Below the pieces are notes generated by a model, which did no database searches, was not told the DNA's origin, and was given only the letters and a program-made list of their open reading frames with translations. From Lactarius indigo (taxonomy: Eukaryota; Basidiomycota; Agaricomycetes; Russulales; Russulaceae), in the NCBI GenBank assembly GCA_025766275.1, contig JAFKAC010000133.1, forward strand, positions 1-64,000: 64,000 nucleotides of DNA, written 5' to 3'. The number at the start of each line of letters is the position of its first letter. Position 1 is the first letter of the stretch. Both the position numbers and the translations under genes were made by a program. Shown piece by piece: positions 16,340 to 63,189 of the stretch.

Positions 16340-16492
16340 AGGTAGAAGTCACTAGGAACGGGCACCCCTTATGTAAGCCACAAACCCTAGGGTTTGATTA
16401 TGTAAGCAGGACCAATCTTGAGGTCCGACATCAAAAAAAAATACAATTTAGATTCTGGTTAAATGAGGAGAGGGGGGAAGTAAACAATGTCA

Positions 16493-17347
16493 TTATGAGG
16501 GTACAGAAGCTCTAACTTCCTTGATCATATCTGGTGGGAGGGTACAATGGCCATGATACTTTTTATTTGCCCACACAGCCTGTGTACCTGTTAAGCCCTC
16601 TCCATATGCATGAATGAACCTTGCTGAGCAATTAGCAAACCTACAGACCCATTAGGGATTACAGAAAACAATTGCCATAGTGTGCTCACCGACAAATTTG
16701 ATCAAGGGGCACATCATCAAGACTTGCTTTCACATTCTCCTCCAACTGTTTAATGGTGGTAGCCCGACCAGCAAGGCGGAACCGAAGCTTTGCAGCTCCC
16801 CAATACTGCTCAATAAAGTTTAGCTCACAGTGATACTTGGGGTAAAAATCACAGATGTGGCCACAGTGCTCAATGAGCTCTTGAAGCTGTGACTTCTGAG
16901 AAATAAAGTCAGGCTGATTAAAGAGGAGGCGGCGACAGCAGCAGTCTGTCTGATCTTGAGGGCATTTGAAGCCTGGGCACTGAGCTGGCAAATCAGTCTC
17001 TGGCCAAAGACCACGCTCCCGTATAATCTGCTCCATCCCTTTAAACCAGCCTGGCATGGTGGGGTGGTCATCAGGAAAGTAAAAAGACTGTGGCTCCTTA
17101 GTTTGAGGATGAACACCATGGCACATCCTTGGCCCATCTTTGAAAGGTGTCCAGTGAGCTTTAGGATCTGCAAGGCAATGATTAGTTATCTAAAAGTAAG
17201 CAAAATAAAAAGAATACTTTTAGCCATGTTTCTTGCAGACAGAGCATTAGGAGCTCGCTTCTGATGTGAGGGGGCATTGTCAAAGAGGAACAGTCCCTGT
17301 ACATAGCCTTTTGTCTTGCCCTCAAAGATGTCAATTGCACCCTCAAT
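16493..17347 (-). pseudogene. Mariner-like DDE transposase, C-terminal third (M1)
   Basis: The fragment resumes exactly where the other part stops (EGAIDIFEGKTKGYVQGLF). It contains the second catalytic aspartate block (LFLFDNAPSHQKRAPNALSA) and, after an intron, the third catalytic block (FYPKYHCELNFIEQYWGAAK, with the acidic residue in NFIEQYW). A second short intron leads to the C terminus (RFIHAYGEGLTG, VWANKKYHGH), ending at TAA (16493-16495). All DDE-type blocks are thus present, but in two pieces separated by 10.9 kb of gypsy-1. Confidence 0.8.
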
Positions 17348-17925
17348 GTTACGCCCTAGCAGGGGCGTGGGTTCTAAAGGTTCTGAATCACACAAGTATC
17401 AAGCGAAGACTTCTGTTGTCTTATTGCTATGAAATACGAGTGATAAAAGTGTGGCACAAGGTGCAGCACTACTCTGTAATGTAGGACTCCTCGTCCGAAG
17501 TGTCTAACACTTCTCTACACTTGATCTTGCTAGTGCACAGAGTATAACAGGTGTAACGCGTTGATATAGTTCAACTGCAAAGACTTTGAAGTGTCCTGAT
17601 TAGGGACTGAGGTAGGGGATGCACAAGAAGAGAGGGATAAGGCAAGGTCACACCAAAGTATGGAGGCAAGGTTGCTAGATTGCAAATGAAGCCAAGTCTG
17701 GCTTCCTACGGTCTATGGTACAGGTTTATACAGGACAGGGTTCCAAACAACATGAACACAAGTCCACACAATATCAAAGAGACTAAACGGAGTAAACAGA
17801 AGTTTGGATCAAAGAAACAGCGCCACTAGTAACAGTAGCTCCTTTGGTAACAAGGTATAGTACAGAAGGGGGAAGGCAGGGTGGAGACATACTGTGACTT
17901 AGGTCCGAAGCGTCGGATCATAACA
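17348..17925 (-). repeat. Gypsy-1 3' LTR
   Basis: 578 bp, TG...CA ends, almost identical to the copies at 24446 and 27687. Several of the differences are C/T or G/A at CpG-type sites (for example CTTTG versus CTTCG). Confidence 0.93.
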
Positions 17926-17952
17926 TGAGCCCCTCTCTAAGTCAACTCTCCC

Positions 17953-20336
17953 CATCAGGAAAAACGGTATCCTAGAATTTTTAAAAATTTTAAAAACTTT
18001 TAGAAAAATGGTAATATATGAATAATTGCTATGATTTTTCAAAAGTTGTGAAAAATTGGCAAGATAAAGACCTCCCCTCTAATATCTAGTTATATTTTGG
18101 GAAATATTACCAAATATCTGCATAAATGAACACATGTTCAGTATGTTTTGACTGAATGTGTCCAAATTTACATCACATCCAGCAAAGCACTTCAGTGCAA
18201 CTTAGTGAACTGTAGCTCCATTCAAAAAACAATAATATATTTGACTGAGAAGAGTACATGTAACTACAGTTTAATTAATGTATTAAGGAAACATGGCAGT
18301 GGGGGTCTTGCGTGGCGTGTCGGGGTGGTGTGGGGGTATGCCGGTAGTGGCGGAGTCTTGAAGCCGCGTGCTGGGGCAGCGGTGGCGCCGGGGTCTTGAA
18401 GCCGCGTGGCGGGTCGGCGGTGGCGGGGTCTTGAGGCCGCGCGGTGGGGTCTTGCGTGGCGTGTTGGGGCGGCGTGGCGCAGGTGGTGGTGGGCGTACTG
18501 GGGTGGCGCGGCGGGTCGGTGGTGGCGGGGTCTTGCACGCCGCATTGGCGTAGCGTGGCAGGTCGGCGGCGACGGCAGCGGGGTCTTGCGTGATATAACG
18601 GGGCGGCGTGGTGTTAAGTTGGGGGTGGCGGGGTCTTGGACGCCAGGTTGGGGCAGCGTGGTGGCGGGTTGGCGGTCGGGGCATGGCGTGCCGCGTCGGG
18701 GGTAGCGATGAGGCCGGTATGGCCACGGCCGTGGTGGTTCATGTGCACGGGGGGTCCTGCAAACGGAAAAAAAGAATGAAAGAAAAAAAGAAAAAAAAGA
18801 AAAAAAAAAACTTATGCATTGAGCCGAAGTCCGGCTCTTCCCCAACCGCGTCTTTCCTCTGGCGTAGGCTGTGGAGGTGGCCCGCGTGTGTGGTGGGAAG
18901 AGAAGAAAAAAAAACCCCAGGTGGGGGAGCGTTGAGAGGAAATGGAGTGAGTGGGTGTTCACGCGTTCACGCCACAGATTAAGCCTCCGCTTGACGATTT
19001 TTTTCTAAGTCGCCACGCCCAGTCGCCACGTCACCTCCCTCCTACATCTTGGATACGGTAAGTCTTTTTTTTTCTCGTCTCTCATCACGCTGATATCCAG
19101 GCCACTGCACCCGCCCACACCACCACCATCTCAGCCCGGCCAGCGTGGCCTCCACTCCCACAGCCAACGCAAGATGCAGCCGACGGTACGTTTTTTTTTT
19201 TTTTGTTTTCTTTTAACGGGCCACTCAAGGATCTACCACCACACCCGCTGTACGCAAGGACGACACCCACACCTCGCTCGTCTGCGGCGAGCGCCGGCTA
19301 TGCAAGCCGCCACCTCCTTTCCTCAGCCCCAACGCCCGCCGCCGCCGTTCCTCACCACACTCATCATGAAGAGGCGGCTGACGACGAGCTGGGCTTCGGC
19401 CCAGCAGACAAGATATGTTTTTTTTTTCTCTCTTTTTCTTTTTCTTTTTCTCATCTTGCTTCTCCAGCGCATGCAATGCACCTCGCACCTCACCTCGCAG
19501 GTCCTCGCCACCGCCTCGCCACATGCAAGACAGGACAACGGCACCACGCCGTCCCCTCCAACTGCCGTGCCTCAACGACTTCGCCTTTCCACCACGCCGG
19601 TCCACGGCGACATTCCCAACATGGACGCAAGACCCCCACCACAGTGCCGACTTGCTACGTGCAAGCCCTGTCGTGACCCCACGCCCTCCTACCTCGGCTC
19701 CACAAATCTAGATAAGTTTTTCTTTTTTTCTTTTTTTTTTTTCTTTTAATGTTGAACTCGTGCAGGACCACTGTCTCCCTCGCTTACCACCACGCCGGTC
19801 GTGGCAATGTCGCCGCCACACACTTGGCTCAATATTTAGATAAGTTTTTTTTTTTATTTGATTTTTTGGTTTCGTTTTTTTTCTTATATTGAACCTGCAG
19901 GCCTATGGCAATCCATGACACTGCCGCTACCCGTCCCACTGCCACCCCGCCACACATCGGCCATTGCCATGACCATGTCACTGCCCTCACTTACCCTGTA
20001 TCAATTGTAGTTTCATGTACTCTTATTAGTTACAATATATTATTGTTTTTTTGATGCAACTATAACTGAGTGCCCTTGTTTGCAACTAAAATACTCTGCT
20101 GTTTGTGATGCAATTTTGGACATATTCACCCAATATATGCTGAGATATGTCCATTTATTCGGATATTTGGTAAGATTTTACCAAATCTAACTGGAAATTT
20201 GGAGGGAGGTTTTTATCTCACCTATCTTAACAATTTTGGAAAATCGGAAAAACAGCTTATTTCTTAACATATATTACCATTTTTCTGAAATTTGTTAAAT
20301 TTTTTAAAAAATTCTAGGATACCATTTTTCCTGATG
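17953..20336. mobile_element. Non-autonomous TIR element (2.4 kb) with Plavaka-like termini
   Basis: The ends are inverted repeats of about 70 bp: CATCAGGAAAAACGGTATCC at 17953 and its counterpart ending CCTGATG at 20336, with CC duplicated on both sides (17951-17952, 20337-20338). The terminal CATCAGG(G)AAAA matches the Plavaka-like element at 5737. No transposase is encoded. The interior is GC-rich degenerate repeats (about 18290-18720), a purine run, then C-rich blocks separated by long T tracts (19050-19900). Open frames here are low complexity (Pro/Arg/His or poly-Phe) and are not called. It lies just past the last codon of gypsy-1's zinc-knuckle region. Confidence 0.85.
18290..18720. 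repeat. GC-rich degenerate tandem repeat inside the non-autonomous element
   Basis: A unit of roughly 35-45 bp around GGGGTCTTG(A/C)AGCCGCGTGG and GGCGGGTCGGCGGTGGCGGG recurs about ten times with variable spacing. It gives long Pro/Arg/His open frames on one strand and Gly/Arg/Trp frames on the other. Confidence 0.75.
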
Positions 20337-20337
20337 C

Positions 20338-23300
20338 CTAGAGTGCTTCGAAGTCCATTAGGTCATAGACATTGTTGTCTACATCGTTGGAGGGGGTGCT
20401 TTCGCGAGGGAGGGGGCAGCGATGTTGGCGAAGGAAGTTGAAGGGACCATGGGCCCCACACTTGCGACAATTTTCATACTTGGGGCACTTGATTTCTTCG
20501 TGGCTGTTGCTAGTAAAACACTTGCCACACCACTGAGTGTGTTCTTCTGGGGCTGGCCAGAGACACTGATAGGGGAAGTGGTCAGTGCTAGAACACCTCC
20601 AGCAAAACTTCTGTTTTTGAGGGCAGGCGAAGGAGAGGTGGTCTTCAGACTGACACCTGTAACAAAGTCGAATGGTGCCAGTCTCCTTCTTGTTGGCTCT
20701 GCGCTTGCGTCTCTTCTTCCTTTCTGCAGAGGGGCTAGGTCCTTCTGGTTCGTCGTGGAGTTTTGGCATGGAGTGGTAGCGAGGTGGAGCAGGGGCAGGA
20801 ATGTGGTGGACTTCAAAGGGGTGAGTTTCTTCTTCCGGAGGAGGGGGGTGTAGTGTGAGCCATCGGTCTGCAATCCAGACATAGGCCTTGTGTTCTTGCA
20901 GCCTTCTTCGGGTGCTGGTTAGTTGCATGTCCATGTTGAGGAGGTGCCTTTTGAGGGGCTCCATCGTCTTGTACAGGCCTTCAATCTCCTTTCGGAGGGC
21001 CTTCTGATTTTGCAAGAGTCAGCGAGTCCTGGAGATTTCTGCTGTGAGGCGGTCATCTTTCAGGTCTTCTAGGACTTCATCGACTTGTCTGGCTGTGGGG
21101 GAAGCTTCGTCCAAGTTCTGCATCTGAGCTGGGGTGATGGGGGGAGCTGGATTGTGGGGGTCGTCGTCTCTGGGAAGGAGGAAAAGGGGGAGGCCATAGT
21201 GAGGGAGGTTCTTGCCCATGGTGCCGATGACATCTTCTTTGTTTTCACTGATCTTGATCCATTTGGCATCCTTTTGGATGTACGAAGTTGGGTCAGTGTC
21301 GTCAGGGATGAGGAAGTGGACATAGCGGCTGCTCCAGGGGTCATTTAAGAAGAAGGGGTAACCAGGGTCGTCGTCTTCTTCAGCAGTGATGTGCATCCTT
21401 TCATAGTTAATGGGGAGTGCGTCCATGATTGGGTCGTTGGTTATTTCGCTGAGACGAGCCATGGTCACTCTAGGATCAGGGGGGGAGGTGGTAGGTCGGT
21501 GTATCTCGGGAGTAGGGGGAGCTGTGTGTCCAGGAGGGGGAACGCGAAGGGCTATTCCTCCTCCTTCTGTTTCTATGACGCTGGGCATGGTGGGATTGAT
21601 GGGTTGTGGTTCCTGGATGAGTGAAGGCAAGGAAGGGGGTCGTGCTGGGAAGGGATAATAGCCAGAGGAGGGTGTGACAGAGGGTGTTTCATCAAAGGAG
21701 CCTCTTTCCATGGCACAAGCAACAAGACATTCTACAGAGGAGGAGCGAGAGGGCATGGTGAGGAAGCTAGTGGGGAAGGTGGTTGCTGTTCGTACTGTTA
21801 CTTCCTTTCGTTTTAACCATTGCTTTGCTCCTTCGCTTCTGGGGTTGCTTTCAAAGTGTTCCTGAATAAGTTCTGGGGCGTTGAGGTTCTTTTCTGGTTC
21901 CCAACTGTTGTGTGCATCGGAGTATCCCTTCCACTTGATTAGGAACTGTAACTGGTTCCTGTGGCATCTTGTTTCTAGTATTTTCTCGACTTCCCAGTCC
22001 TGTTCTCCATCTACTAGATCTGGGGGTGGTTCCGTAAAGTTCTTTCCATGTATGGAGGTTTCTTTGTATGGCATCAGGAGTGACGCATGGAATACTGGGT
22101 GGATCCGCCACTGATGGGGAAGTTTCAGGGCATATGTGGTGGCGGAGATCTTCTTTGTGACCCTGAAGGGTCCATATCTTTTTGGGGCTAACTTGAAACT
22201 AGGGTGCGTTGTTTTCAAGTTCCTGGCATCCAGCCACACACTATCTCCTTCTGTGTGTTGTTCGAAGCGAGAGGATCCTTTGTAGAGTGACTGTGCATGG
22301 GTAATTGCTGCTTGGGCGGTCCTTCTGGCTTCCTGGATTTGCTCCAATCTCTCTTGTGTTCCTGGTACTGTGGTCGTTCTTTCTGGTTGGTGTACTCTTG
22401 GGATGTACCCAAGGATTAATTCGTAGGGTGCCTTTTTAGTGGTTGCACTTGGCCAGGAGTTGTGGGTGTACTGTGCCAGTGGTAGTAGCTCCGTCCAATT
22501 GTCTTGTTGATGGTTTATGAACATTTGGAGGTACTGTTCTAACCACTGGTTTGTTCGCTCTGATTGTCCATCTGTTTGTGGGTGGTATGCTGTGCTGATG
22601 TTTTGTTCTATGTCAAGCACTCTGCACAGTTCTTTGATGAACTTCGCTGTGAATCTGGGGTCTCTGTCGGAGATGACCCTTCTTGGTAGTCCATAGTGTG
22701 GCAGGACAGTTTTGGCATAGAGTTTTGCCACTCCTTCTGCGTCTATTGTTTCGCTGCATGGGATAAAGAAGGCTGCTTTGGAACAGTCATGATCCGTGAT
22801 GGTGAGAATTGTGTCATTGTCTTCTGATTGGGGTAGCTTTGTGATAAAGTCTAGAGCGATGGTTTCAAAAGGGAGTGCTTCTGGGTTAGTCTTGATGGGG
22901 AATATCGGTGGTTTCGGGTTCCCAGGGAAGTTCTTGTTTGATTGGCATGTGGCACAGCCCTTTACATATGTGGATATGTCATCTTTCATGTTTGGCCACC
23001 AAAAGTCTTGTGACACTAACCACAAGGTCTTTGTTATTCCAGGGTGTCCAGCTGTTTTTGTATCGTGAAACAGGGAAATTACCCCCCTCTTTAGCGGTGT
23101 GTTGTCCACAACCACCAGTTTGTCACCTCTCCACCAGTGTTTGCCTTGTTTTACTAGGTGGAAGGGGGCGGTCCACTCGTCCAGAGTGTCTTGGTGGTCT
23201 AATTGGTGTGCCATGACCCGGTCATCTATCCTTATGGAGAGAGCGGAGTTTGCGAAGATGGTTGGGGTCAGGACCACTACATCAGTGTTATCCCCTGCTC

Positions 23301-25832
23301 CGGTGTCGTGGTCAGGGCATCTTGACAGGGCATCAGCATGGTTTTGGGGTCCAGGTTTGTGGTGAAGTTTGATGTGATAGTCTGCAAGTCTGGGGATGTA
23401 GCGCGCCACTCTCCTATTGATTTGTCGAGGGTGGCGATAATATTCTAGGTTTTTGTGGTCTGTAAACACTGTGATTTCGTGGGGGGACCCTAAAAGAAGG
23501 TGTCTCCAGTGTTCCAGTCCTCTGATTACTGCCAGGAGTTCCCTGTCATGGATGTCATAGTTGCGCTCCGCTTCTGAAAATGATTTGGAGAAGTATCCCA
23601 CAGCTTGTGGTTTGTTTCAGCTGTCTCTTTGTGTTAAGATTGCCCCTGTGGCAAAAGCGGAGGCATCTACTTCTAGTTCGAAAGGTTTGTCCATATCTGG
23701 TTGGCATAAGATGGGGTCTTTGCACACAAGCGTGATGAGAGCTTCTAAGGCTTCTGCTGCTTCCTTTGTCCATCTGAAGGGTCCTTCTGACGTCTTTATT
23801 GTGTCCGTGATGGGTCTTGCTAAGTGAGCGAAGTTGGGGATGAAGGGTCGCTGATAACTTAGTGTTCCCAACACGCTTCTTGCTTGTTTGACTGACTTGA
23901 TGTCTCTTGGCCAGTCTTTTAGTCCTTCTACCTTCTTTGGGTCAATTTTGATTTGAGACCCATCGATGACAATGCCTAGGTAGTGGATCTTTCTTTGTTC
24001 GAACACGCATTTCGACGCTTTAAGGAAATAAGATTCCTTTTCACAGATTTCCAAGAACTCATGTACAATTTGTCTGTGGCGTTCTGTATCTTCTTCTGTG
24101 GCTATCAGGACATCGTCCATGTACACAAATAGCTCTCTTGGGTATTTGTCCATAAGTGGTCGAAGTATTCTGCTCATGGTTCTTGCAAAGGTGGCTGGTG
24201 CATTTGTGAGGCCAAAGGTCATGACTCAAGGGATGAACAGCCCCCTTGGTGTCTTGAAGGCTGCCTTCCACTGGTCTTCCTCTTTTATGTGGATGTTATG
24301 GTACCCCCATCTAATATCGAACTTTGAGAACAGTGTTTTCCCATTTAAGTTGGTCAGGATGTTGGAGATGAGAGGTAGTGGGTAAGTGTCTTTTATTGTC
24401 CAGGTGTTTAGGGGTCTGTAGTCCAGGATAGGGCGCAACCCTCCATGTTACGCCCTAGCAGGGGCGTGGGTTCTAAAGGTTCTGAGTCACACAAGTATCA
24501 AGCGAAGACCTCTGTTGTCTTATTGCTATGAAATACGAGTGGTAAAAGTGTGGCACAAGGTGCAGCACTACTCTGTAATGTAGGACTCCTCGTCCGAAGT
24601 GTCTAACACTTCTCTACACTTGATCTTGCTAGTGCACAGAGTTTAACAGGTGTAACGCGTTGATATAGTTCAACTGCAAAGACTTCGAAGTGTCCTGATT
24701 AGGGACTGAGGTAGGGGATGCACAAGAAGAGAGGGATAAGGCGGGGTCACACCAAAGTACAGAGGCAAGGTTGCTAGATTGCAAACGAAGCCAAGTCTGG
24801 CTTCCTATGGTCTATGGTACAGGTTTATATAGGACAGGGTTCCAAACAACATGAACACAAGTCCACACAATATCAAAGAGGCTAAACGGAGTAAACAGAA
24901 GTTTGGATCAAAGAAACAGCGCCACTAGTAACAGTAGCTCCTTTGGTAACAAAGTATAGTACAGAAGGGGAAAGGCAGGGTGGAGACATACTGTGACTTA
25001 GGTCCGAAGCGTTGGATCATAACACTCCATCTGTTTTCTTTCTGAAGAAGAAGGAGGAAGCGTAGGGGGAGCTTCCTTCATAAATGTATCCTTTTGCTAT
25101 GTTTTCGTCAAGATATGCCTTCAACTCCTTGTCTTCTTCTGGAGTCAAGGGGTAGATTTTGCAGTTGATCTTGTTGGGTGCATCTGGTCGCAATGTGATG
25201 GGATGGTCTTCTTCTCTTTCTGGGGGAAAGCGCTGTGCTTCTTCGTCTGAGAATACTTTGTTGTGGCGCTGGTATTCTTCTGGGATTGCAGTTTCTTTTA
25301 CTGGGTCAAAGGTTGTTTTGGTTGCTGCCGCTTTCGCTTCTTGGTGTCGCTTTCTTCGGAAGCGGTACCCTCCTGTCAGGATGGTGACGGCTTCTCCTTT
25401 CAGCTCTTGTTTCTTCCAGTCTATGTCTGGGTTTTCGTGTTCAAACCAGGGGTATCCAAAGATCATTCTGTCTTCCCCTAGGCTGGTTACGAAAAACTGG
25501 AAAGGAGTTTCTTCTTCTCCTCTTTTTATCCATAGCTGGCATGTTTCTGTCATGGTGCCATCTTTGTTTAGCGATCCATCTACATTCCGGACCAATCTGG
25601 GTGGTTTCAGAGGAGTGGTTCCTAGTCCAAGTTTTTGGATTAGGTTTCGGTCGATTAGGTTGTCTGTTGCACCGCTGTCCAGCAGCACATTTATACAAGC
25701 TTCTTTGTAGTAAAGGCGAACGAGGACTTTGATTGTCATAGCACTATCGCGAACACTATACATTGAATTGGCCTCCCTGTCAGCTCTCACAGGTCGGCAT
25801 CGCAAAAATCCTGATCTAAGGCATAGTAGCAT
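20338..25832 (-). pseudogene. Gypsy-1 pol: protease, reverse transcriptase, RNase H, integrase, chromodomain, extension, zinc knuckles
   Basis: Pol overlaps the gag end (25787-25832) in the -1 frame. Domains in order: aspartic protease (VLLDSGATDNLID), reverse transcriptase (LRPILDYRPLN, then FVYMDDVLIA), RNase H (FELEVDASAFATGAILTQRD, then YDIHDRELLAVIRGLEHW), HHCC zinc region (HPGITKT...CATCQSNK), integrase core (ALDFITKLPQSEDND, VISDRDPRFT, STAYHPQTDGQSERTNQW), chromodomain (WEVEKILETRCHRNQLQFL, KWKGYSDAHNSWEPEKN), and a long extension with RYVHFLIPDDTDP. Four CCHC/CCCH-like knuckles then follow (CYRCQSEDHLSFAC, CWRCSSTDHFPYQC, CGKCFTSNSHEEIKC, CRKCGAHGPFNF). It is disrupted by a solo LTR (24446-25024) and by TGA at 24226, 23617 and 21019. 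Confidence 0.9.
24446..25024 (-). mobile_element. Solo LTR of the gypsy-1 family inserted in gypsy-1 reverse transcriptase
   Basis: This is a 579-bp copy of the gypsy-1 LTR with its own 5-bp duplication CTCCA (24441-24445 and 25025-25029). The reverse transcriptase frame is cut between KKTDG and LRPILDYRPLN. A second element of the same family must have landed here and later lost its body by LTR-LTR recombination. Confidence 0.93.
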
Positions 25833-27064
25833 CTCTTTTCATCCTCAGTCATGCCTTGGACGAGTGCATGGGCTTGTCGGACTTTATCTTCGGTTGTGGT
25901 AGCAGCCACTGATGAGGTGCTTGCTTCTGGGGTGTATGGGGGTGCAGTGTCCGCTTCTTGAGTGTCTGTGGCTCTGGCTTTGGTTTGGTTGGTGGTGTTT
26001 TGTCGTTGACAGTTCCTAGCCATGTGTCCTTGCTGTCTGCATTTGAAGCAGCATCCTTCTTTCATGAGGGCTTTCTTTTCTTCTTCAGTAAGCTTCTTAA
26101 AGGGGGTAGAGGTGGTGGCATCTACATCCATCGCATTTGGGTCTCACTTTGGTCGTCCTTGGTGGACATTCTGGGTTGGCCCTGGGTTTCTATTCCCTGG
26201 TCTGGCTTTTAGCAGCTTCCAGCGTTGGTGTTCTGCTCTGGCAGCGGTTTGCCACTCGTCCATGGTGTTTGGGATGGTGGTTCGCATAAGGCAAGCACGA
26301 TACAGTCCTGTGGGTAGTCCTCTTTTGAAGAATTCTACCGTTCCAGGGGCATCTCTTGCCCATCCTGCTATTCCTGCAAGGTGTTCGAAGTCGAGGATGT
26401 AACTGTCCAATGCTCCGCCCTGCATCGTTAAACTGATGAGCTTCTGATAGGCTCTTTCTTTGTTTAGAGTGTCGGTCCAGTCTCTGTCGAAGGTGTCGAG
26501 AAAACCATCCCAAAGATCTTTGCTGTTTTTGGTGAGGGCTTTGGTGGGGTCTGCTAGTGCCACTTCCATGTCATCTTTGGTTTGGTTGACCCACAGCTGT
26601 ACACCGGGTCCTTTGAACATTGTAAGGGCGAATAGTACCCGTGCATAAGGTTCTTTGATGAGTTCATTCTCGCTATTTAACTTGATGTATCGTAGTAGTT
26701 CTCTTTTGAACTGACCACTCTCTGTTCTATCTCCGGTGAACGGAGTAGGGGGTGCTCCTTTGAGTCCTCCTGAGCTCATTGTTGGTGTTCCTCCTGTTCC
26801 AGTGCTTGAGCTGGTACCTGTGCCAGTGCCTGTGGCGTTTATGGCTGACATGATAAGTGTTGGCTGTGGTGTGATGGGGATCTGGGGTGGTTCGACTGGG
26901 GAGGGCAATCTGATTGGTGGTAGTGGGGCTGGGAATCCTTCTTCCGCTGGGGATGGTTCTATCCAGATAGGGATAGTGGGGCTGGCTTGTGACAAAGCTT
27001 GTGTGGGTACTGTGATGTCTAGGCGGTGTTCTGAGGAGTGGGATAGTTCTGAGTGTAATTCCAC
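25787..27064 (-). pseudogene. Gypsy-1 gag with CCHC zinc knuckle
   Basis: After a Thr/Gly/Ser-rich linker (TGTGTGTSSSTGTGG) comes the capsid-like helical region (LKGAPPTPFTGDRTESGQFK, WDGFLDTFDRDW, MDEWQTAARAEHQRWKLL). An in-frame TGA lies at 26144-26146 in RPK*DPNAMDVD; CGA there would restore Arg. The zinc knuckle CFKCRQQGHMARNC then follows, with the gag stop at 25787. The same frame is open upstream to about 27478 but is closed by TAG at 27254, so the true N terminus is unclear. Pol follows in the -1 frame; a run of five T lies in the overlap but no textbook slippery heptamer. Confidence 0.82.
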
Positions 27065-27686
27065 TTCGTCTAAGCTGGGTTCTTCTGATGATGAGTCTTG
27101 TTGTAGTCCGTATGTTCCCCTAGTGTTTCTTGGTGTTGAGGATGATTGTTGTGTGGGCGTTTCTGGGTTCTGTTCGTCTTCTTCGTTCCACCAGCCTAGT
27201 CCTTCAGCAAATCTGTGTGGTGTGATGTTTATGGCTCTGGTGTGGTATGTATTCTAAAAGTATCGGAGGATGTACCAGTTGTTGTTGATGAATTCCACTG
27301 GTCTGAGTTCGCCTTTGATGAGGCACTTGTAACAAGGTGGTCTGCCTGATGTTGTGGCCCAGCGAGCTCCTTTTCCTAGTTGACTGCTTTTAACGTGGTG
27401 TGGGAGGTCGTCTTGTGTTCTGGTTGTGACTGGGGTCCAATCGTTGTCTGATTCAAAGGTGACACTGATGCTAGCCACGATTGTGGTCTGTCTTGGGTGC
27501 TGATTTGTGTAAGGGGATGGCTGAAGCGGCCTCTTGTGTCAGGGAGGATCCGTTGCCCGGCTATGCCATCGTTTCTGGGTTCTGTGGAGTGTCTGATTGT
27601 TGGCTGATGCGTCCTCTTGGATCGTCGCCCACTCTGCCATGTGGCAGTAGTGTCTTGGGTGTGTTGGGAGTTGTAGACTTGGCTTA

Positions 27687-28265: not shown

Positions 28266-28270
28266 CTCAA

Positions 28271-38624: not shown

Positions 38625-38713
38625 CAAATAGTGTCGGGAAGAAGGACTACGGCAGCAAGGAATAAAGAGCAACTTTCTCGGACCCACCCTTGTCCGGATT
38701 TTATATCTATTGG

Positions 38714-51815: not shown

Positions 51816-51960
51816 GACGATCCAGGGATAGAGCCCAAAACAAAATTGTGTACCAATATGATTACACCGCTGCAGATCTGGACCTTGTACACGGACACAC
51901 CCGATTAATGCTCGAGGAGACGGGAATTCAAATGACGGTTTGAAGTAGAGTAATACAATG

Positions 51961-53122: not shown

Positions 53123-53468
53123 GGCAGTGACCGTTGGTGTCAGTAGGTGGGAGTCGTGGTGACCGTGGGAATCGCAACGAGTCTCATTATCGACTCGCGT
53201 CTTGTTGTCGGCCTCTAACCTCTAGCATCTGAATCAACGACCCCAACACCTCTTTTCCAGCGTGAACTCTTGTTATCACATCGATCACGTTCCGATCGCG
53301 CCACACCTCCAAACTCCTGCGACGATACGATTATCAAGCCCGGGTCTTTGATTCACTAAAGATCAATACATTACACATTTTACAGAAGCGGCCTTCCTCT
53401 CATTCGGTATTAGGCCACTGGATGCTGCTTCGACGCCGATCGGGTAAACCCTTACTTCGCGACTATCA
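53123..53468. other. Intergenic, upstream of YIP1 gene
   Basis: Promoter side of the YIP1-family gene; nothing else recognised. Confidence 0.4.
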
Positions 53469-54140
53469 TTGTCCCCCGCTTCGAGAAGATCAAGGACCTC
53501 AAACGCTCGAGAAATTCTCTGCGTCCTCACGTGCATGTTTCTGAAGAAATTGATAGGTAGATACCGATATCGAGCACTCGGACTCGGTTTAATCAACCTC
53601 TTTAGCGCATTAGATGTGCTGGAGGTGTTGGATAAATTGACACGAGAGGTTGAATGGCAGAGGTCCGACAGCGTCGGCGATGGCGTAGAGGAACTGGAAA
53701 GAAAAAAGACAACAAAGTGCAGCGCGTCGACGAAAGATCCAAGTGGACATTGACGGTGAGCAAGGGGTGTCTAGTTGGTCACCTAAAACCATTTGATGAA
53801 GGTAAGGGGGCAAGAGTGATAGCAATCAAAAGCAAATTAATCGTTCAAAAAATAGCAACGGCGTAGAAGTGGGCGAAATGAAGCCTCGCTGTTTCCTTAT
53901 AGGTGTTCACAAGGAGCCAGCTACAACTCCTTTTAGCTTGGCACCCTCCCTGTGGTTCACCGACGTTTCACGACGAGCCCAACCCAAGGAAATGGTGCAT
54001 GGTTCCCCCAAGGTAGTACCCTCATTATTGACGGAATTCACTGGGTCCCTGTTGTGGTCCCACGGAAAATGTCCATTCCACTCTTCCACTTTCGTTTGCG
54101 AGGTTCACCCCTTCTGACAGTTTCTAACTCTCGTGGCTAA
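53469..54140 (+). pseudogene. Relic of a Goodbye-NACHT gene
   Basis: Two blocks match the NLR at 33.3-37 kb in order. MFLKKLIGRYRYR with LDVLEVLDKLTREVEW corresponds to the end of the Goodbye domain (FLKKLTGRTD, IKKLDRLTQEEA). AQPKEMVHGSP with LTEFTGSLLWSHGK corresponds to the pre-Walker-A linker (AQHKGMAMWFFQ, WKSTGSLLWIHGK), followed by an intron-like GTCCATTCC...CTGACAG as in the intact gene. P-loop and everything after are missing. It lies next to the hAT end at 54488. Matches are short, so the assignment rests on order and on the conserved intron position. Confidence 0.6.
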
Positions 54141-54487
54141 CACTTGTAAAAGCATCACCCGGTCATTGTTCCATGGTGGCGTCTCGTTGAATTTTTTTTG
54201 CCAATTCCTCGGTGATCAAAACGTCATGGCGTACATGAGGCTATATCGACACTTCTACTTATGGGTACCGAAAAGCAAAACCATCGCGGCTTGCTGATTT
54301 CTATTGTACCTGGCTTTCTACTCACTCTAGTCTTGCTACGAGCGTTCGAAGAGTGTGGCCTAGTGCGCGCCAAAGTCCAAGAGTAAGCGAGATAAAGGGG
54401 TCGAGATTGAAGCTTGAAGAGTGATCGACGTGCCCAATTTGGAAATTAAAAGCAGATACAAGTACAAAGTTGTTTGGTACTGGTAGC
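54141..54487. other. Non-coding stretch between NLR relic and hAT end
   Basis: Nothing recognised. The 8 bp next to the hAT terminus (CTGGTAGC) do not match the 8 bp next to its other terminus (ACTTGAAG at 12856-12863). Confidence 0.45.
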
Positions 54488-55328
54488 TAGTGTTGCCGCG
54501 AGTTGATGCGGTCCAAGTCGAGTCGGAAACTCGACAGCAACTCTAACTTGGGAGTTCACACTGGTGCAACTCGGAAGTTCAGGTCCAGATGGGAACCAAT
54601 GGGAAGCCTTCAATTCTGAAGGTTCACATGCCCCTTTCACCCAGCGTTCTAAGACAGAACACCTCGTACTCAAGTATATATGTGCTGTAACTTAGGTACT
54701 ACCATTGGGCTCATCCATGCTGCGCAACAAATCCAGAAGTTTGTCTGTTTTCCTGAGAGAAACAAGCTCATTAATTGCTGCCTCTGTTGCATACTCAATG
54801 GAGTAGTCCTCTTCAGCTGCAACCAGACCGGACATAAAGTCAAGGCGACCTTGCCTGTATACATGCTTCAAGACTTGAAGAACTTCAAGCAGTGCTGGTG
54901 AGAGGAGGTTCCAGCGTAGAGCACAAGTCTCCTTGCTTGATGAGAAAATGTGTTCACAGGAGACAGACGATGCCTGAACAGGCAAAACATCAACAGCAAC
55001 TTTAAACATGAGTGGAAAATCGGCCCCAATTGCCTATTGACACAATTCATCAGTCATCAATGTGTGATCGGGACAAGAACTTACCTCCCAAAAGCAAACT
55101 AGATCAAATTTCTCCTCCATCGTGCGCAGAGGTGCCTGTTTCCAACGATAGATCTCACTCTTTACAGCAGTGAGGTCTCGGGCAGCGTCCTCAACTTCTT
55201 GATCGGCTGTTTGTTCAGTGGTGAGAGTGGGAATTGATGGAGGGGTGGATGTTGTAGAAAATGGAGTGCTCGTGTAGGGAGATGATGAGCGACTTGATGG
55301 ATTTGAGGTGGAGGGGAGGGAAGCTGTG
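54488..55328 (-). mobile_element. hAT-type DNA transposon, right part (inverted relative to the left part)
   Basis: It starts with the terminus TAGTGTTGCCGCGAGTT at 54488, has AACTCG subterminal words, and encodes the hAT C terminus on the minus strand. It ends at 55328 with CTGTG, the reverse complement of the CACAG at 16072-16076, and is directly followed by the gypsy-2 5' LTR. Confidence 0.85.
54692..55328 (-). pseudogene. hAT transposase C-terminal part (dimerisation domain)
   Basis: The frame opens at the Gypsy junction (ASLPSTSNPSSRSSS), gives a low-complexity Ser/Thr linker, then KSEIYRWKQAPLRTMEEKFD. After a short intron comes the conserved hAT dimerisation motif: LPVQASSVSCEHIFSSSKET with LSPALLEVLQVLKHVYRQG. 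It ends near 54692. It completes the transposase begun at 13168. Confidence 0.82.
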
Positions 55329-55779
55329 TGTTACGATCTCTGCATATGGACCCTTACTGTACCGGTTGTGGCTACGGCTGTAAGGTAAATTAGTCACGGA
55401 CTCGGGGTTTATGCGGCGTTAGGAGATTACGAATGACTCAATCCTAGTACAGGTAGTAGTAGTATTAGGATTGCGGTACTTATGCGATACGTTGGACGCT
55501 ACGATACTGTGACTCATAGCAGCGCTTGAAAGCCTGCTCTTCTTGTATTTAAGGTAGCTGCAGAAGACCAAGATACGCCATCTTGGTCTTCTTCAATCGT
55601 CACTACTTGTCTCTCTTCCCCTCTATTCCACTCTCTCCTTGAACGGAGGAGTTGCAGTATACTAGTGTCTTCGAACATCTAGATGTTGCCTTCATGCCAT
55701 ACGCCTTCGAGCGTGATCTGCTAAGTTGCACAGTTGCCTTGTCGAGCTCAAGTCGAGCTAACGTCGTGATGGCGTTACA
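55329..55779 (+). repeat. Gypsy-2 5' LTR (451 bp)
   Basis: Starts TGTTACGATC and ends GGCGTTACA (TG...CA, with TGTTACG/CGTTACA inverted ends). The sequence after it (TTAAGACCAAGATACC) is not a canonical TGG tRNA-primer site. Confidence 0.92.
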
Positions 55780-55798
55780 TTAAGACCAAGATACCACC

Positions 55799-57804
55799 GT
55801 GGCGACTGTCAACACCCGTGACCAGTGGACGAGTTTCCATCCATATCATCTAGAACGAAGAGGAGATCGTAATGTACCGACCAGATTCCTGGGAGCCGCT
55901 CGGTGGAGAGACCGAGGAGACGAAACCGGATACTTTGTGGAGTTCAACGGACCTACTAGGTTCAGACCTGTTGAGTTCAATTTCGATCACCTCTGCTGGG
56001 TAGAGATTACGTGGAACCCTATAGATCATCGGTGGGACGTAGTACGACCAGCAGGAAGACAATGTCAGTGCGACATCAACGCACGAGAGCTCAATTCACG
56101 AGCTGACTGGGGACCCATCGACGGACAACTACGAGAGCACTCCACAGGAGAAGTGGTAAGTGAAGAAACCGAAGAAGGTGAGCAAAGTGAAGAAAATCGA
56201 CCAGCAAGTGTTGGACCAATCGAACAATATACTATCCAACGAGCTGAGTCCCTACATATCTTGGAACAGCCAGAAGTCATCTACGTACATTCATCGGCAG
56301 CAGAAATGGCCACAACTACCATGACGACAGAAGAAATCATAAGTGCAAGAGAACAAGCGGTGCGAGAAGCCGCTGAAGCCATCAGACAGGAGTCACAACG
56401 GAACCTCATGCCAATAAACCCAGAAACAGGACATCGCATGACTGCAGATGACGCAGCCATCTTTCGGGCAATCGGACCCGATCAAGGAGACCCCCGTCGG
56501 GAGAAGGTCGACATCAAGGACTATCACTCGACCCTCTGCCGGGCTGGGGAGGACCCCTGGGAGGAGATTTCCCCTGAAGACCTGGAGGCGGAGGAAACCC
56601 GCCAGACCTACCGAACAATCCACCCGGAGGAGGAGGAGGTCTACCCGGAGGAGGAGGAGGTCCACCCGGAGGAGGAGGAGGTCCGCCGGTAGGAGGAGGA
56701 GGACTGGGACATGAGAAACTGACTGGTGAACCTCCCAATATTTTTGACGGAGATCGTACTAAAGTGGACTCATTCCTCACGCAATGGCATGTGTACTGGG
56801 GAATGAACCTCGACACCCCGGTCATGCGCAACGACTATTGAAGGAGTCTCCTGTTCCTTTTGTACATCAAGGGGGTCTCGGTTAGCGAATGGGTGCTTTC
56901 GTACCTCAAGTGGCTCAATCGACAAATACAATGAGGAATAGACCAATATACCAGAGATCTCTGGAATGCGGTGGCAGAAGGGTTTAACCAAAGGTTCGTC
57001 AATACCCTTGAAAGAGAACAAGCTCAAGCGCTTCTGAGAAAGGGGCTCAAGATGATTGACAGGGACATTGACAAGTATGTCAATGAATTCGAAGAAGCCG
57101 CCCGAAAAGCGGGATACCACCTCAATGATCCACAAACCATCGACTTGTTCACCAAGGGATTGCCGAAGAAACTCTACAAGAAAACCTACGATTTGGATGA
57201 ACCGGAGACGTTCGACGAGTGGAAATGGGTGACACTTCGCCGACAACGAAACTACATTCACGTACGGGCGCGAGAGGATGAATATAAAGACACCAAGCCA
57301 AAGAAAACAGGAAATGCCGGTTGGACCGTTCCCCAGAACCTCGCCAACCCCTGGGCAATGGACACCTCGGCCAACAGAGCAAAGGCCCGACTCGCAGGGT
57401 CAGAAGAAATCGACTACGGCAAGCCGCCGTACACAAACTTCCCCCCTTTTCGCCAAGAGGGGGCCCGGGAGTTAGAGGACGGGGAAGGGGTGGATCATGA
57501 CGAGACCTCAGGACAGTCCTGTGCTACAATTGTAACACGCCAGGCCACCTCTCACAAAATTGTCCCCATCCCAGACAACCACGACAGTGGCAGTCACAAA
57601 ACCCCGGACCATCCAACGTCCGGGCAGCGGAGACTGACTACTACGCACAAGAACCACCGCTGGCCCAAATACAGGCCGCCTCTACCACCAAAACCGCAGA
57701 AGAACGGGCCAAAGAGTGGCTTACAGGGGTCGCAAATGCACCTGACGAAGTAAAAGACCTGATATTACAGGACTTATGGGGAAAAGAGGGTTTTCGGAGC
57801 GCCT
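55799..57804 (+). pseudogene. Gypsy-2 gag (decayed)
   Basis: The frame begins just after the LTR with HLCWVEITWNPIDHRWDVV; the first in-frame ATG is only at 56306, so the start is unclear. A Gly/Pro-rich linker is encoded by an 18-bp minisatellite (56620-56690), where the frame changes. The capsid-like part (EKLTGEPPNIFDGDRTKVDS, DLWNAVAEGFNQRFVNT, YHLNDPQTIDLFTKGLPKKL) has TGA at 56839 and 56932. A further one-base shift near 57500 is needed to reach the zinc knuckle CYNCNTPGHLSQNC. Gag ends at TAA 57804-57806, 18 nt after a G GGA AAA heptamer. Confidence 0.8.
57779..57785 (+). promoter_or_regulatory. Candidate -1 ribosomal frameshift site G GGA AAA between gag and pol
   Basis: In the gag frame the codons read TGG-GGA-AAA-GAG, so the heptamer has the X XXY YYZ pattern in the correct phase. 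Slipping back one base at AAA gives AGA-GGG-TTT, exactly the pol frame (RGFSERLNPSAWV), which is open from here into the protease. The gag stop TAA follows 18 nt downstream. Confidence 0.65.
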
Positions 57805-60247
57805 AAACCCATCGGCCTGGGTGAGGGCTTTAAATTGTAATTCTGTAATCATGACATGCTTTCGTTCTCTTCGAATTCCAGTCTCGATACGCACGAATTA
57901 CCGAATGGCTGACATAAGAGCGTTGGTGGACTCCGGAGCCACTGATAATTTCATACATCCAAGTTTCATAACAAAAATGGGAATTGGCACACAACCGCTC
58001 GCCCAACCACGGAAGATTTGGAACATAGACCAAACGGAAAACAAAGCTGGGTCTATTTCTCACTTCACCAACCTCAACGTATATGCCAAAGGATACCACA
58101 GAACGATGCGCTTCCTTGTAATGGATGTTGGAACCGAGGAAATTGTGCTGGGATACCCATGGCTGGCAACCTACGAACCGACCATCAACTGGCGTGATGC
58201 GGTAATACACGAGGAGGTTATGCCGGTGGTAATCAGTACTCAGGACAGTCTTCACCGCCACACTGTCATTGCTGCTGCCCTCACTAACGACCAAAAAGAG
58301 GAAATAATTGACGCCTTGGACGAAGAAGATGTACACCTACGCGCTACGACATCCACAGAGCTGGCGATCCTGGCTAAAGGAGACGAACCGCCAGTAGAAT
58401 TGCCAGCAGAATATCAAGCATTTCAGAAGCTCTTCAGCGAAGAAGCATCCCAGCGTTTTCCCCCCGCGAGACCGTGGGATCACGCCATCGAGTTTAAATC
58501 AAACACCCCGTCCGCAATAGATTGCAAGATATACCCACTCACGCAGGAAGAAGAGGGCAAGCTTAAAGAATTCCTAGACGAGAAACTTAAGCAGGGATAC
58601 CTCCGTCCTTCCATTTCCCCGTACGCATCATCGTTTTTCTTCGTCAAAAAGAAGGACGGAAAGCTACGCCCAGTACAGGACTACCAGGTAATCAACTCGC
58701 ACACCATACGCAATCAATACCCTCTCCCTCTCATTCAAGACCTCATCTACGATCTCAGTAATGCACACATCTACACCAAACTCGACATTCGCTGGGGATA
58801 CAACAACATTCGCATCTGAGACGGAGACCAGGAGAAAGCGGCTTTCAAAACCAAATTTGGCCTCTTTGAACCAACGGTAATGTTCTTCAGCCTCACAAAC
58901 TCGCCCGCAACCTTTCAGACGATGATGAATCATATTTATCGCGATACAATTGCGAAACACGAACAACGCGGCACTGTCATCCAAGTTTACATGGACGACA
59001 TTGGCATTGCGACGCGAGAAGGTCACAACTCCGCAGATCACATTGCGGCAGTCACGGACGTCCTTCGCATCACTCAAGACCACGACCTGTACTTCAAACT
59101 TGAAAAGTGCCTCTTCCACCAGCCTCGGATGGATTACCTGGGGGTAATCCTTGAAAAGGGGGTAACACGCATGGATCCGGTAAAAGTACGGGGCATCAAG
59201 GACTGGCCAACACCAACAAAAGTCAGGGACGTACGCTCCTTCCTAGGTTTTTGCAACTTTTACCACTTATTCATCTGAGGCTTTGCCACCCATGCCCGAC
59301 CACTGAACCGACTTACGAGAAAAGATACCGAATGGCAGTGGACGGAAGACGAAGATCGCGCATTCAAAACACTCAAATGCCTTGTCACCGAAGAACCGGT
59401 GCTGGCACACCCCAACTTGCAGGATCAATTTGAACTTGAAGTCGACGCCTCTGGGTTTGCGGTGGGTGCAGTCCTTCTACAAAAGAAAAGTGACGGGCAC
59501 AAGCACCCGATAGGATACTACTTGGCAACGCTGAGTGAAGCAGAATGGAATTACGATATTTACGATCTGGAACTCTTGGCCATCGTAAAGGCTCTTCGAC
59601 ATTGGCGCCCCCTGCTCGCAGGATCCCCACATAAGATCAAAATATTCTCGGACCACTTGAACCTGCAATACTGGAAGACACCACAAAAGATCAGTCGAAG
59701 GGTCGCCCGAGAGGTGCTAGAGCTGATGGAATACGACTTCGAGATCCATCATATCAAAGGGAAGAACAACGGTAGGGCAGACGCATTGTCGAGGCGGCCG
59801 GATTATAATCAAGGGGAAGACGACAACCAAGGTGTGGTCGTTCTACCTCCGGAAGTATTCATACGAGCCACTAATGTTGCACGCACGCTGGAAATACACC
59901 CCATGATGCAACAACCGAGGCGACAACAAGACCCCACGATGATCAAGGCATGGATCGACGCCCATTGTCTCAAGGAGATAGACGGAGAATGGTACAAGGA
60001 CGGACGATTAGTAATCATGGGACCAATGACAACATACCGTGCCATTATACAAGATCACCACGACCCACCAGTACACGGACACCTGGGAATAAGTCGGACA
60101 CAGTGAATTGTAGAACGACGCCACTGGTGGCTGAGCCTTCGCAAGGATGTCTATGAATACGTCACGGGGTGCGCGGACTGCCAACCAAACAAAGTCAATA
60201 CCAGACCAACTCGTGCCCCGTTGCACCCGATCACTGTCACGATCACG

Positions 60248-60673
60248 TGACATCACAGTCACCTGTCACGAGTCACGAATTGCCAGCGCAACCGCTGGCT
60301 CACAATTATGCCAAACCCCTTGCCCAATCACCTCAGAATAACACCTTCTTGTGTCAGAATTGTGCTAGCACTTACACGTCTCTTAGCTAGCTGATGTGGC
60401 TTAGATAACAGACCTGAAAAACCCCAGTATTGTATGACTATAAGAGTTGTAGAGTAAACAAGTAGTTACCTTGTCTACTCTTAGTCCTTTGAAACCAATC
60501 TACAGTTGCCTTGTCTTTGCTTGCCCGAATCCTCCTCTCTCGTGCGATTGCCTCTGGCTTGAGCCACGATCACCCCGACTTCAACTTAGTCGTTGACTAA
60601 GTTCCGACACTACCTGCCCTTGCCTTGGGCCCGAACTCGAACGCGTCACGGACGGTCCGTTGGTACCGTGACA
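60248..60673 (+). mobile_element. Solo LTR of a third LTR-retrotransposon family, inside gypsy-2 integrase
   Basis: The 426-bp insert starts TGACATCACAG and ends GTACCGTGACA. ATCACG flanks both sides (60242-60247, 60674-60679), and removing the insert with one copy restores the integrase frame (HPITVTITAIADAPPFHTIA). A TATA-like TGACTATAAGAG lies in the middle and a CT-rich part follows, as in LTRs. A 6-bp duplication is slightly longer than the usual 5. Confidence 0.78.
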
Positions 60674-63001
60674 ATCACGGCTATCGCAGACGCCCCTCCT
60701 TTCCACACCATTGCTCTAGACTTTATTACCAAACTGCCGATCTCACAGTCGTATGACAGTATCCTAACCGTCACGGACCACGACTGTAGCAAGGCATCAA
60801 TATTTATTCCATGCAACGAAGAGATTACAGCGGAAGGCACAGCTATCCTGTACGTTAATCACGTGTTCAAACGATTCAGATTACCGCGTAAAATCATTAG
60901 TGATCGCGACCCCCGATTTACCTCCAAATTCACAAGAGAGGTATGCCGAATACTGGGTATTCAACAAAACATTTCAACAGCCTACCACCTGCGAACGGAC
61001 GGACAATCCAAACGGACCAATCAGTGGCTTGAACAATATCTTCGATTCTGGGCCAATGAGCGTCAAGATAATTGGGCGGCCTATCTCCCCATAGCAGAAT
61101 TCGCTCACAACAATTGGCCCCATGAACATACGAAACAATCTCCATTCATGCTCTTGATGGGATATAACCCAACCACTGATTGGACGGATAAGCCATCCCC
61201 AATTCCGAACGTGATCACCAGACTGACACAATTAAAGGAAGCGTGTCAGCTGGCCCAGGACCTCATCAAAAAGGCACAAGAGAGCTGGATCCGGCACAAA
61301 GATACCCCACGATATCAAGTAGGCGACCAAGTATGGCTAGAGGGAAAACACCTGCGAACCAATCAGCCTACGGCAAAATTAGCGGCGCAACGCCACGGCC
61401 TGTTTAAGGTGGTTCAGGTGATGTCCCCTTATAATTACCACCTCGAACTTCCCACACAGTGGAGCATTCATCCAGTGTTCCACATCGATCTTCTCACGCC
61501 ATACAAACACACTAACTTTCACGGCGAGAACTTCCCATGTCCCCCACTGGATCTCGTGGAGGGAGAGGAAGAGTACAAGGTCGAGGCCATTCTGGACTCT
61601 CGGCATTTCGGAAGGAGAAAGAAACTGCAGTATCTGATCGAGTGGAAGGGGTATCCAGACTCGGAGAATCAGTGGGTCGACAAAGACGACGTGTTCACCC
61701 CAGAAGCGATAAAGGAATATCAAGCGGACCGGATGACCGCACAACATCTTAAAAGCCAGCTTGCGGAAGGACAGGGAGAGTATCCTTCCTACCTCCGATC
61801 CTCTTACACTTCCATGCCCACTTCTCCTCTCAGACATGTCACCATGGCGATCCTCCTCGACCAAGTCACACAAGACGCCACCAACCTCCTCGAAGACGAC
61901 GAAGAAACCATGGTACAACAGGTCCAGCTCACTCCGTACACACCTGCAAACGTGCGAACGGGGCATATCACCGCTCAAGAATGGGCTGGCATCTTACAGA
62001 GGTTCCCCGATCCGACCCAACAGCCCGACGACGAGCAGCAGTCTGCCGTCGCTCACATCTTCTGAGATGACAACGGTAATCGGGAGCCCATCGCCGTCAT
62101 CCCCCCAGGTGACGACCTCATCGGCACGTGGGGAATTCTCCCGGCCGACCGACCCCTCAAAGACCCAACCAGAGTTAGAAGCAGCGGAGGATTGGCGGAG
62201 AGTGGCGAAGGAGTGGGCCGAGGAACAACTGCGCTTAGCGCAGAAGAGATTGAGCGAGTTGCGGCAGCGCAGGCAGCGCTCCCTAACGACCAGGCTCACG
62301 CTGACGACGAGGATTACTACCCAGTCAGACACCCCCTCCTTCGAACGCACAGCCACCCTACTGATTCCCGAATCACCCCGTGGCTCGTCCACACCAACGG
62401 AACCCCCATGTCTCAAGGACGTGTGCAACTGCCCGGCATCGCACTTCACACCCCCATTACGCACGACGACGACCCCGCGCAGGTCCTTGCGCCTGAGGGG
62501 TTCAGGGCGAATCGACAGCCCCATTACATTCACTTCCCCATCACTGGGCCCGATGGCGTAGAGAGGAACGCCAGTCATGTTCAAATAGTCGGAGGTGCGA
62601 ATCCTTTCGTCCTGGGACTTATCCCAGGCTCCCCTCACCTTTACGGCAAACCCCTCTACGCCTTCCCCATGCTACCACCCATGGGGCGTGCCTTCATCGC
62701 CCACAAGGACTTGGTCATCCTCGCCTCTGACAAGATCATGGACCGCGCTCTACACCGCATCGGGGACGAGTCCCTGACCGCGGAGGTGATGCGCTATCGA
62801 GTGGCTGTGTATGAAGAAGAGCGGCTTGCTGCTCGCATTCGCCAACTCCAGGCAATGCGACTGTCGGCGAGGGACGATAAGAAGGACTGCATTTACTGGT
62901 TGGAGAGGGCTAACGTATTTGAGAGGATTAGCGACGAGCAGTCCACGTGGACGGCGCGAGATTTCCAGTGAGTCTGGAGTCTCACGCTGAAAAGGGGGTG
63001 A

Positions 63002-63189
63002 TGTTACGATCTCCACATACGGACCCTTACTGTACTGGTTGTGGCTACGGCTGTAAGGTAAATTAGTCACGGACTCGGGGTTTACGTGGCATTAGGAGAT
63101 TACAAATGACTTGATCCTAGTACAGGTAGTAGTAGTATTAGGATTGCGGTACTTACGCGATACGTTGGACGCTACGATACTGTGACTCA
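63002..63189 (+). repeat. Gypsy-2 3' LTR, first 188 bp only
   Basis: Matches 55329-55516 with 11 differences, all transitions at CpG-derived dinucleotides. It breaks at TA in GACTCATA, where M2 is inserted. Confidence 0.92.

What the first reader, a model, noticed from the sequence alone, without database searches (positions are those of the whole stretch)
16340..63189. A ~32-kb inversion (or misassembly) between two inverted mariner copies, provable from target-site duplications
Seen: the gypsy-2 5' LTR at 55329 is preceded by CTGTG, but its 3' LTR is cut at a TA by M2. A reverse LTR piece at 16077-16339 starts after CACAG (reverse complement of CTGTG) and stops at the same TA beside M1. The hAT gene is likewise split, N part ending at 16076 (+) and C part beginning at 55328 (-). 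Inverting 30,950-63,189 in silico simultaneously restores (a) one complete gypsy-2 with matching 5-bp duplication CACAG, (b) a continuous hAT reading frame, and (c) a complete 3' LTR with the mariner in a TA. Three independent repairs from one move is strong evidence. Recombination between M1 and M2 is the natural mechanism; an assembly mis-join at the same repeats would look identical.
Basis: partly seen in the sequence, partly recalled or inferred. Interest (0 to 1): 0.88.

Follow-up and report, generated by a model that had tools for sequence, protein, structure and literature searches.

The report
A 32-kb inversion between two transposons
In a mushroom genome (likely a milk-cap, Lactarius), a 32-thousand-base stretch lies between two inverted copies of one jumping gene and sits reversed relative to its surroundings in this assembly; it likely flipped when those two copies recombined, and it gives an unusually clear sequence record of a well-known way in which chromosomes rearrange.

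Summary
M1 (16338-30951, carrying a nested gypsy element) and M2 (63190-66878, ending beyond the window) are inverted copies of one TA-flanked 3.69-kb DNA transposon. Three tests show that 30952-63189 is reversed relative to its flanks. (1) The two hAT halves abut, with exactly the 5-bp overlap expected, in all three other near-identical hAT copies found. (2) The two split LTR pieces are the two sides of one TA in a gypsy-2 LTR, with matching CTGTG duplications outside. The third test is new and strong. The likely mechanism is ectopic homologous recombination between inverted copies, a known kind of event; a mis-join during assembly cannot be excluded without reads. One expected repair fails: the reunited hAT lacks a matching 8-bp duplication, although three of three other copies have theirs, so an earlier rearrangement also lies here. 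C39 differs from C24/C272 by further large changes in a NACHT-like/CHAT gene region. New member of a known kind; modest interest.

The parts
12864..16076 (+). hAT transposon, left (N) part, starting at its terminal repeat TAGTGTTGCC in the 5' part of a CHAT gene and ending with the gypsy-2 target duplication CACAG (16072-16076)
   Evidence: continues in position into 55328-54488 in 3 of 3 other near-identical copies; CHAT gene by continuity in C24
16077..16339 (-). outer half of the gypsy-2 3' LTR, cut at TA by the mariner
   Evidence: 97% to the gypsy-2 5' LTR; next best 85% (40 of 1756 candidates scored)
16338..30951 (-). M1, TA-flanked Tc1/mariner-like element interrupted by gypsy-1
   Evidence: both arms align to M2 (98.8% and 99.5%)
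17347..28265 (-). gypsy-1 nested in M1 (LTRs about 17347-17925 and 27687-28265, 5-bp duplication CTCAA)
   Evidence: domains on its ORF 21022-23601
24446..25024 (-). solo LTR of the gypsy-1 family inside gypsy-1, with 5-bp duplication CTCCA
30952..63189 (.). segment reversed relative to its flanks (32,238 bp if taken to the inner mariner ends)
30952..37096 (+). flank X: NACHT-like/ankyrin gene region, joined directly to the sequence beyond M2 in C24 and C272
44012..45625 (+). CHAT-domain gene; 44049-44220 repeats 12693-12864, the piece cut by the hAT
54488..55328 (-). hAT transposon, right (C) part with hAT dimerisation domain, beginning with the duplication CTGTG (55324-55328)
55329..55779 (+). 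gypsy-2 5' LTR, complete
55780..63001 (+). gypsy-2 internal region (Ty3/gypsy with chromodomain)
   Evidence: domains tested on the piece 61100-62062 only
63002..63191 (+). inner half of the gypsy-2 3' LTR, cut at TA
63190..64000 (+). M2, uninterrupted mariner-like copy, inverted to M1; continues to contig position 66878

Best explanation
The segment 30952-63189 is reversed relative to its flanks in this assembly, and it was likely flipped in the living fungus by homologous recombination between two inverted copies of one mariner-like transposon. Order of events read from the nesting: a hAT element lay with one end in a CHAT gene (shown); gypsy-2 inserted into the hAT (shown by CTGTG/CACAG); one mariner copy inserted at a TA in the gypsy-2 3' LTR (shown); another inserted at a TA between flanks X and Z (shown by the empty sites in C24 and C272). 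A crossover between the two copies then exchanged their halves (inferred). It reversed everything between them and left each copy with one flank from each insertion site (the flank exchange is shown). No third target site is seen, so aberrant transposition is not needed.
For:: inverted near-identical copies exactly at both ends; M2 is 3689 bp with terminal repeats and TA. X (30950-34292) and Z (66877-68103, reversed) abut at one shared TA in C24 (L028) and C272 (L029); the N half of hAT has 4 places and the C half 4 near-identical ones (plus 13 weaker, partial matches, 71-93%); 3 are contiguous with a 5-bp overlap, so the only orphan N and the only near-identical orphan C found are the window's. 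CTGTG on both outer sides of gypsy-2; the LTR pieces share one TA; the best match of each orphan LTR piece, apart from itself and among the 40 candidates scored in each call, is the gypsy-2 5' LTR; the frame crosses the site in an intact copy. M1 and M2 differ at 33 of 3686 aligned positions (0.9%) and are closer to each other (27 of 2308 in the first part, 1.2%) than to the four other copies compared (2.8-4.2%).
Against: No reads could be examined, so an assembly mis-join at the same copies would look the same. The crossover point cannot be placed, because the two parental copies are not known separately. The hAT's own 8-bp duplication does not match after the flip, so the locus has a further break. 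C39 differs from C24/C272 in other large ways, which leaves room for a chimeric contig. No un-inverted copy with the gypsy-2 insertion appeared among the scored matches.
Confidence: 0.78

Rival explanations
1. Assembly mis-join: the chromosome is un-inverted, and the assembler crossed over between M1 and M2.
For: The signature is identical in sequence. Six close copies of the element, M1 and M2 included, were found. C39 is a short, repeat-rich contig (134 kb) in an assembly that holds two versions of some loci.
Against: M1 carries gypsy-1 and M2 does not, so the repeat to be bridged is only 1.0, 2.7 or 3.7 kb. Contigs reach megabases (C24 1.56 Mb, C1 4.0 Mb), which suggests long reads (inference). 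Two junctions must both be wrong.
Confidence: 0.17
2. Alternative (reversed-ends) transposition by the mariner transposase inverted the segment.
For: Such non-standard transposition is described for Ac/Ds, P and impala elements (PMC8225341, section read).
Against: That model needs copies in direct orientation and a new target site with its own duplication. Here the copies are inverted, both keep both ends, and every flank belongs to one of two earlier insertion sites.
Confidence: 0.03
3. No inversion: separate insertions and losses by chance left hAT and LTR halves in these positions.
For: The region is crowded with transposons and further rearranged.
Against: It would need exact base-level coincidence at hAT (5-bp overlap, 3 of 3 copies), LTR (shared TA), CTGTG on both sides, and X-Z (TA, 2 of 2 contigs).
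Confidence: 0.02

Closest known systems
Drosophila buzzatii inversion 2z3 between Galileo copies (Delprat et al. 2009, PMC2775673; abstract and outline seen)
   Same: Two copies in opposite orientation at the two breakpoints, with exchanged target duplications; non-inverted breakpoints known
   Different: Here it is a mariner-like element in a fungus; the TA duplication itself cannot show the exchange, and the nested gypsy-2 and hAT halves show it instead; small (32 kb); chimerism of the copies could not be tested
Drosophila mojavensis inversion 2s between BuT5 copies (PMC3355041; passages seen)
   Same: Exchanged flanks as proof of ectopic recombination
   Different: There the element's own 9-bp duplications are exchanged, and the inversion is fixed in the species
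TE-bordered inversions in Leptosphaeria (PMC4210507; passages seen)
   Same: Fungal intrachromosomal inversions of similar size (30 of them, 1.3 to 355 kb, median 9.5 kb), bordered by TEs in 70% of the cases
   Different: The passages seen report TEs near breakpoints; here the exact exchange of flanks is shown
Reversed-ends transposition inversions of Ac/Ds (PMC8225341; one section and passages seen)
   Same: Inversion with DNA transposons at both breakpoints
   Different: Needs direct orientation and a newly made target duplication; neither is met here

Membership tests
Inversion by ectopic recombination between inverted TE copies | Homologous copies in opposite orientation at both breakpoints | tested here: met
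Inversion by ectopic recombination between inverted TE copies | Flanks exchanged between the two copies | tested here: met
   LTR halves, hAT halves, X-Z empty site; the copies' own TA duplications are uninformative
Inversion by ectopic recombination between inverted TE copies | No newly made target duplication at a third site | tested here: met
   all four outer flanks belong to the two insertion sites
Inversion by ectopic recombination between inverted TE copies | Both copies chimeric, with a locatable crossover | tested here: inconclusive
   33 differences, no parental reference
Inversion by ectopic recombination between inverted TE copies | Inverted arrangement present in the organism | not testable with these tools
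   no reads, no second strain
Tc1/mariner superfamily | Terminal inverted repeats and TA duplication | tested here: met
   about 41-bp ends 95% alike within each copy and TA at all four ends; single TA in the two empty sites
Tc1/mariner superfamily | DDE/D transposase | tested here: inconclusive
   DDE_3 E=0.0016, 18.8 bits, below the curated cut-off 28.6, on one ORF of M2; two other M2 ORFs had no family, and M1's 660-aa ORF had only an unrelated sub-threshold match
hAT superfamily | hAT dimerisation domain | tested here: met
   PF05699 E=3.2e-07, 30.5 bits, above cut-off 21.4
hAT superfamily | 8-bp target duplication | tested here: not met
   met in 3 of 3 other near-identical copies, not met in the window copy: ACTTGAAG v GCTACCAG; the element is a hAT, its present flanks are not one insertion site
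Reversed-ends (alternative) transposition | Direct orientation of copies and new target duplication | tested here: not met
   criteria

The most novel reading that the evidence does not exclude
The locus records two stacked rounds of transposon-mediated rearrangement: first an exchange or aberrant transposition at a hAT copy, which joined a CHAT gene to a NACHT-gene fragment, left the hAT without a matching duplication and left part of the CHAT gene twice in one contig; later a mariner-mediated inversion on top. A fungal immune-receptor-like (NACHT/CHAT) cluster would thus be reshaped repeatedly by recombination between its resident transposons, leaving versions that differ by more than 170 kb.
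Probability: 0.3. Interest if true: 0.5.

Novelty: new member of a known kind. Interest (0 to 1): 0.4.

Why it matters
Inversions with transposons at their ends are reported in genome comparisons, but the causal step is often not provable. Here nested elements supply base-exact markers on both sides of each transposon, and other contigs of the same assembly supply the empty site. It shows that a single contig can reveal an inversion, or an assembly error, by target-duplication bookkeeping alone, which could be automated as a quality check. It also shows large structural variation in a fungal NACHT-like/CHAT gene region.

Tried and rejected
Reversed-ends transposition was considered and rejected (no third target site, wrong orientation). 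Chance coincidence was rejected. Placing the crossover inside M1/M2 was tried and led nowhere: differences are spread, and no parental copy is known. For that comparison I used 4 of the 6 other places (the 78% and 67% ones were left out) and only the first 2.3 kb of the element, for C263 without its middle. Identity of the 805 bp at 53680-54484 was sought: no copy elsewhere, only weak similarity (two short matches, 67% and 83%) to 35.4-36.0 kb of the window, a NACHT-like region. Placing the right end of contig C39 was tried: no allele found, and the search did not even return the query's own place, so genome-wide absences are not proof. Literature on the same event in Lactarius or Russulaceae: one search listed 8 papers, one a Lactarius evosmus genome note, none about this by its listing and none read; two searches found no paper.

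Full report
What was checked. The window is contig C39, positions 1-64000 of 134043, in a 90.3-Mb, 291-contig assembly. A mitochondrial-type ribosomal S7 gene at 48.3-49.2 kb has its best named relatives in Lactarius (93% to L. sanguifluus over 61% of the query, 89% to L. vividus, 86% to L. quietus), so the host is likely a Lactarius or close kin (inference).

Anatomy. Self-comparison shows M1's right arm (30951-30141) inverted at 63190-64000 with 99.3% identity. With 18 kb of contig beyond the window, M2 is complete at 63190-66878. Its two parts match 30951-28263 (98.8%) and 17346-16334 (99.5%), and the 11-kb gap between these in M1 is gypsy-1, whose 5-bp duplication CTCAA is intact. All four mariner ends carry TA, and within each copy the ends are about 41-bp inverted repeats, 95% alike. 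The family is small: a 701-bp piece of it has 8 matches in the genome, 6 of them at 96% or more including M1 and M2. The transposase label is weak (DDE_3, E=0.0016, below the curated cut-off, on one of the ORFs tried), so the filing under Tc1/mariner rests mainly on ends and TA.

Test 1, hAT. The N part (14800-16076) has 4 matches in the genome. The C part has 17, of which 4 are near-identical (98-100%) over 55328 to about 54485; the rest are weaker and partial. Both sets lie on the same contigs C39, C57, C1 and C93. In C57, C1 and C93 the two parts are contiguous and overlap by exactly 5 bases, which is the length of the gypsy-2 target duplication. In C57 one open frame crosses the site (ORF 2618-3067 of L012...STVRRTASLPS...), and the window's two halves carry its two sides (...STVHRT and TASLPS...).

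Test 2, gypsy-2. The 5' LTR (55329-55779) is preceded by CTGTG. The orphan piece 16077-16339, read on the minus strand, is followed by CTGTG. The two 3' pieces correspond to 55517-55779 and 55329-55518, so they share the TA at 55517-55518, as a TA insertion requires. Apart from itself, the best scored match of each piece is the gypsy-2 5' LTR: 97% against 85% for the next (40 of 1756 candidates scored), and by score 294 against 250 bits, 94% against 93% at most (40 of 1863 scored). The second comparison is weaker, because that part of the LTR is more conserved in the family.

The flank of M1 at 30,952 (X) has 68 matches, most of them partial matches to relatives at 66-81%; besides C39 itself, two close ones reach the 30,952 end, C24 (97%) and C272 (95%). 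In both, X continues without a mariner straight into the reverse complement of the sequence beyond M2 (Z, 66877-68103; 92.9% and 91.5%), the two matches sharing two bases, TA (letters). Two more distant relatives examined (L030, L032) do not reach the site. These are two empty sites for the second mariner, in the orientation that the inversion model requires. C24 and C272 are 96.7% alike over 4.87 kb and hold many related segments in a similar order; they look like two haplotypes of one region (inference).

Mechanism. The flanks of two insertion sites (gypsy-2 LTR; X|Z) are each divided between M1 and M2, the copies are inverted and keep both ends, and no third site is seen. This fits the published signature of ectopic recombination: copies bounded by exchanged target duplications (PMC3355041 passages; PMC2775673 abstract). 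It is unlike reversed-ends transposition, which needs direct orientation and makes a new duplication (PMC8225341 section). M1 and M2 differ by 33 substitutions, all transitions, 31 of them in CpG context or beside another difference, plus a one-base gap. They are more alike (1.2% in the first 2.3 kb) than either is to the four other copies compared (2.8-4.2%). In that first part, 17 of 27 differences look derived in M2, 9 in M1 and 1 is unresolved. I could not place the crossover.

Real or assembly error. Sequence alone cannot decide. In favour of a real inversion: gypsy-1 makes M1 and M2 different, so the stretches to be bridged are 1.0, 2.7 and 3.7 kb, short for long reads; contigs of 1.4-4.0 Mb suggest long reads (inference). 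Against: C39 is a small contig with further differences from C24/C272, so it may be chimeric.

What the flip does not repair. The three other near-identical hAT copies have perfect 8-bp duplications: C57 GTCTCAAC (its right end carries a second copy of the last 16 bp, and the duplication follows that), C1 ACTCAAAC, C93 GTGAGAGG. The window's hAT has ACTTGAAG on the left (12856-12863, in a CHAT gene) and GCTACCAG on the right (54480-54487). Moreover, in C24 the piece before the hAT (5274-12863, minus a Plavaka insert) runs directly into 44049-47905, so C39 holds about 172 bp of the CHAT gene twice (12693-12864 and 44049-44220). In the present, inverted, order these two pieces lie in the same direction as in C24; in the un-inverted order they would not, which also points to a further rearrangement. 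C39 also lacks about 174 kb present in C24 between the counterparts of 37096 and 37118 (about 171 kb in C272), and about 47 kb between the counterparts of 44054 and 44049. An earlier rearrangement at the hAT is therefore likely, and its route is unknown. Region 44060-53600 was found over its length only in C39 and C24 (44 matches, the rest partial), while C272 ends at 268042, about 12.6 kb past its last shared point. So C39 may be the second haplotype there, or a third copy; I cannot tell. The genome search twice failed to return the query's own place, so its absences are not proof.

Verdict. Observation confirmed, interpretation supported, mechanism of a known kind; modest interest, with a possible second layer at the hAT.

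Noticed in passing
12856-12863 and 54480-54487: The hAT's two flanks do not carry the same 8-bp duplication, although 3 of 3 other near-identical copies do: sign of an earlier rearrangement at this hAT.
   Followed up: partly
37096-37118 and 44049-44054: Two junctions where C39 lacks about 174 kb and about 47 kb that C24 has between the same neighbours; at the second the two matches overlap by 6 bases.
   Followed up: partly
12693-12864 and 44049-44220: 172 bp of a CHAT gene present twice in direct orientation; in C24 the two surroundings are one continuous stretch.
   Followed up: partly
5735-11896: A Plavaka transposase element (PF18759) with 35-bp inverted ends; C24 has the empty site.
   Followed up: partly
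M1/M2 and the LTRs of gypsy-1 and gypsy-2: All substitutions between these copies are transitions (33 of 33; 9 of 9; 20 of 20), in M1/M2 31 of 33 in CpG context or beside another difference: looks like decay of methylated cytosines.
   Followed up: partly
3493-5081: Tandem array with a unit of about 132 bp near the left end of the contig (self-matches).
   Followed up: no
53680-54484: 805 bp with no copy found elsewhere in the assembly; weakly similar to the NACHT-like region in the window (67% and 83% over short stretches).
   Followed up: partly
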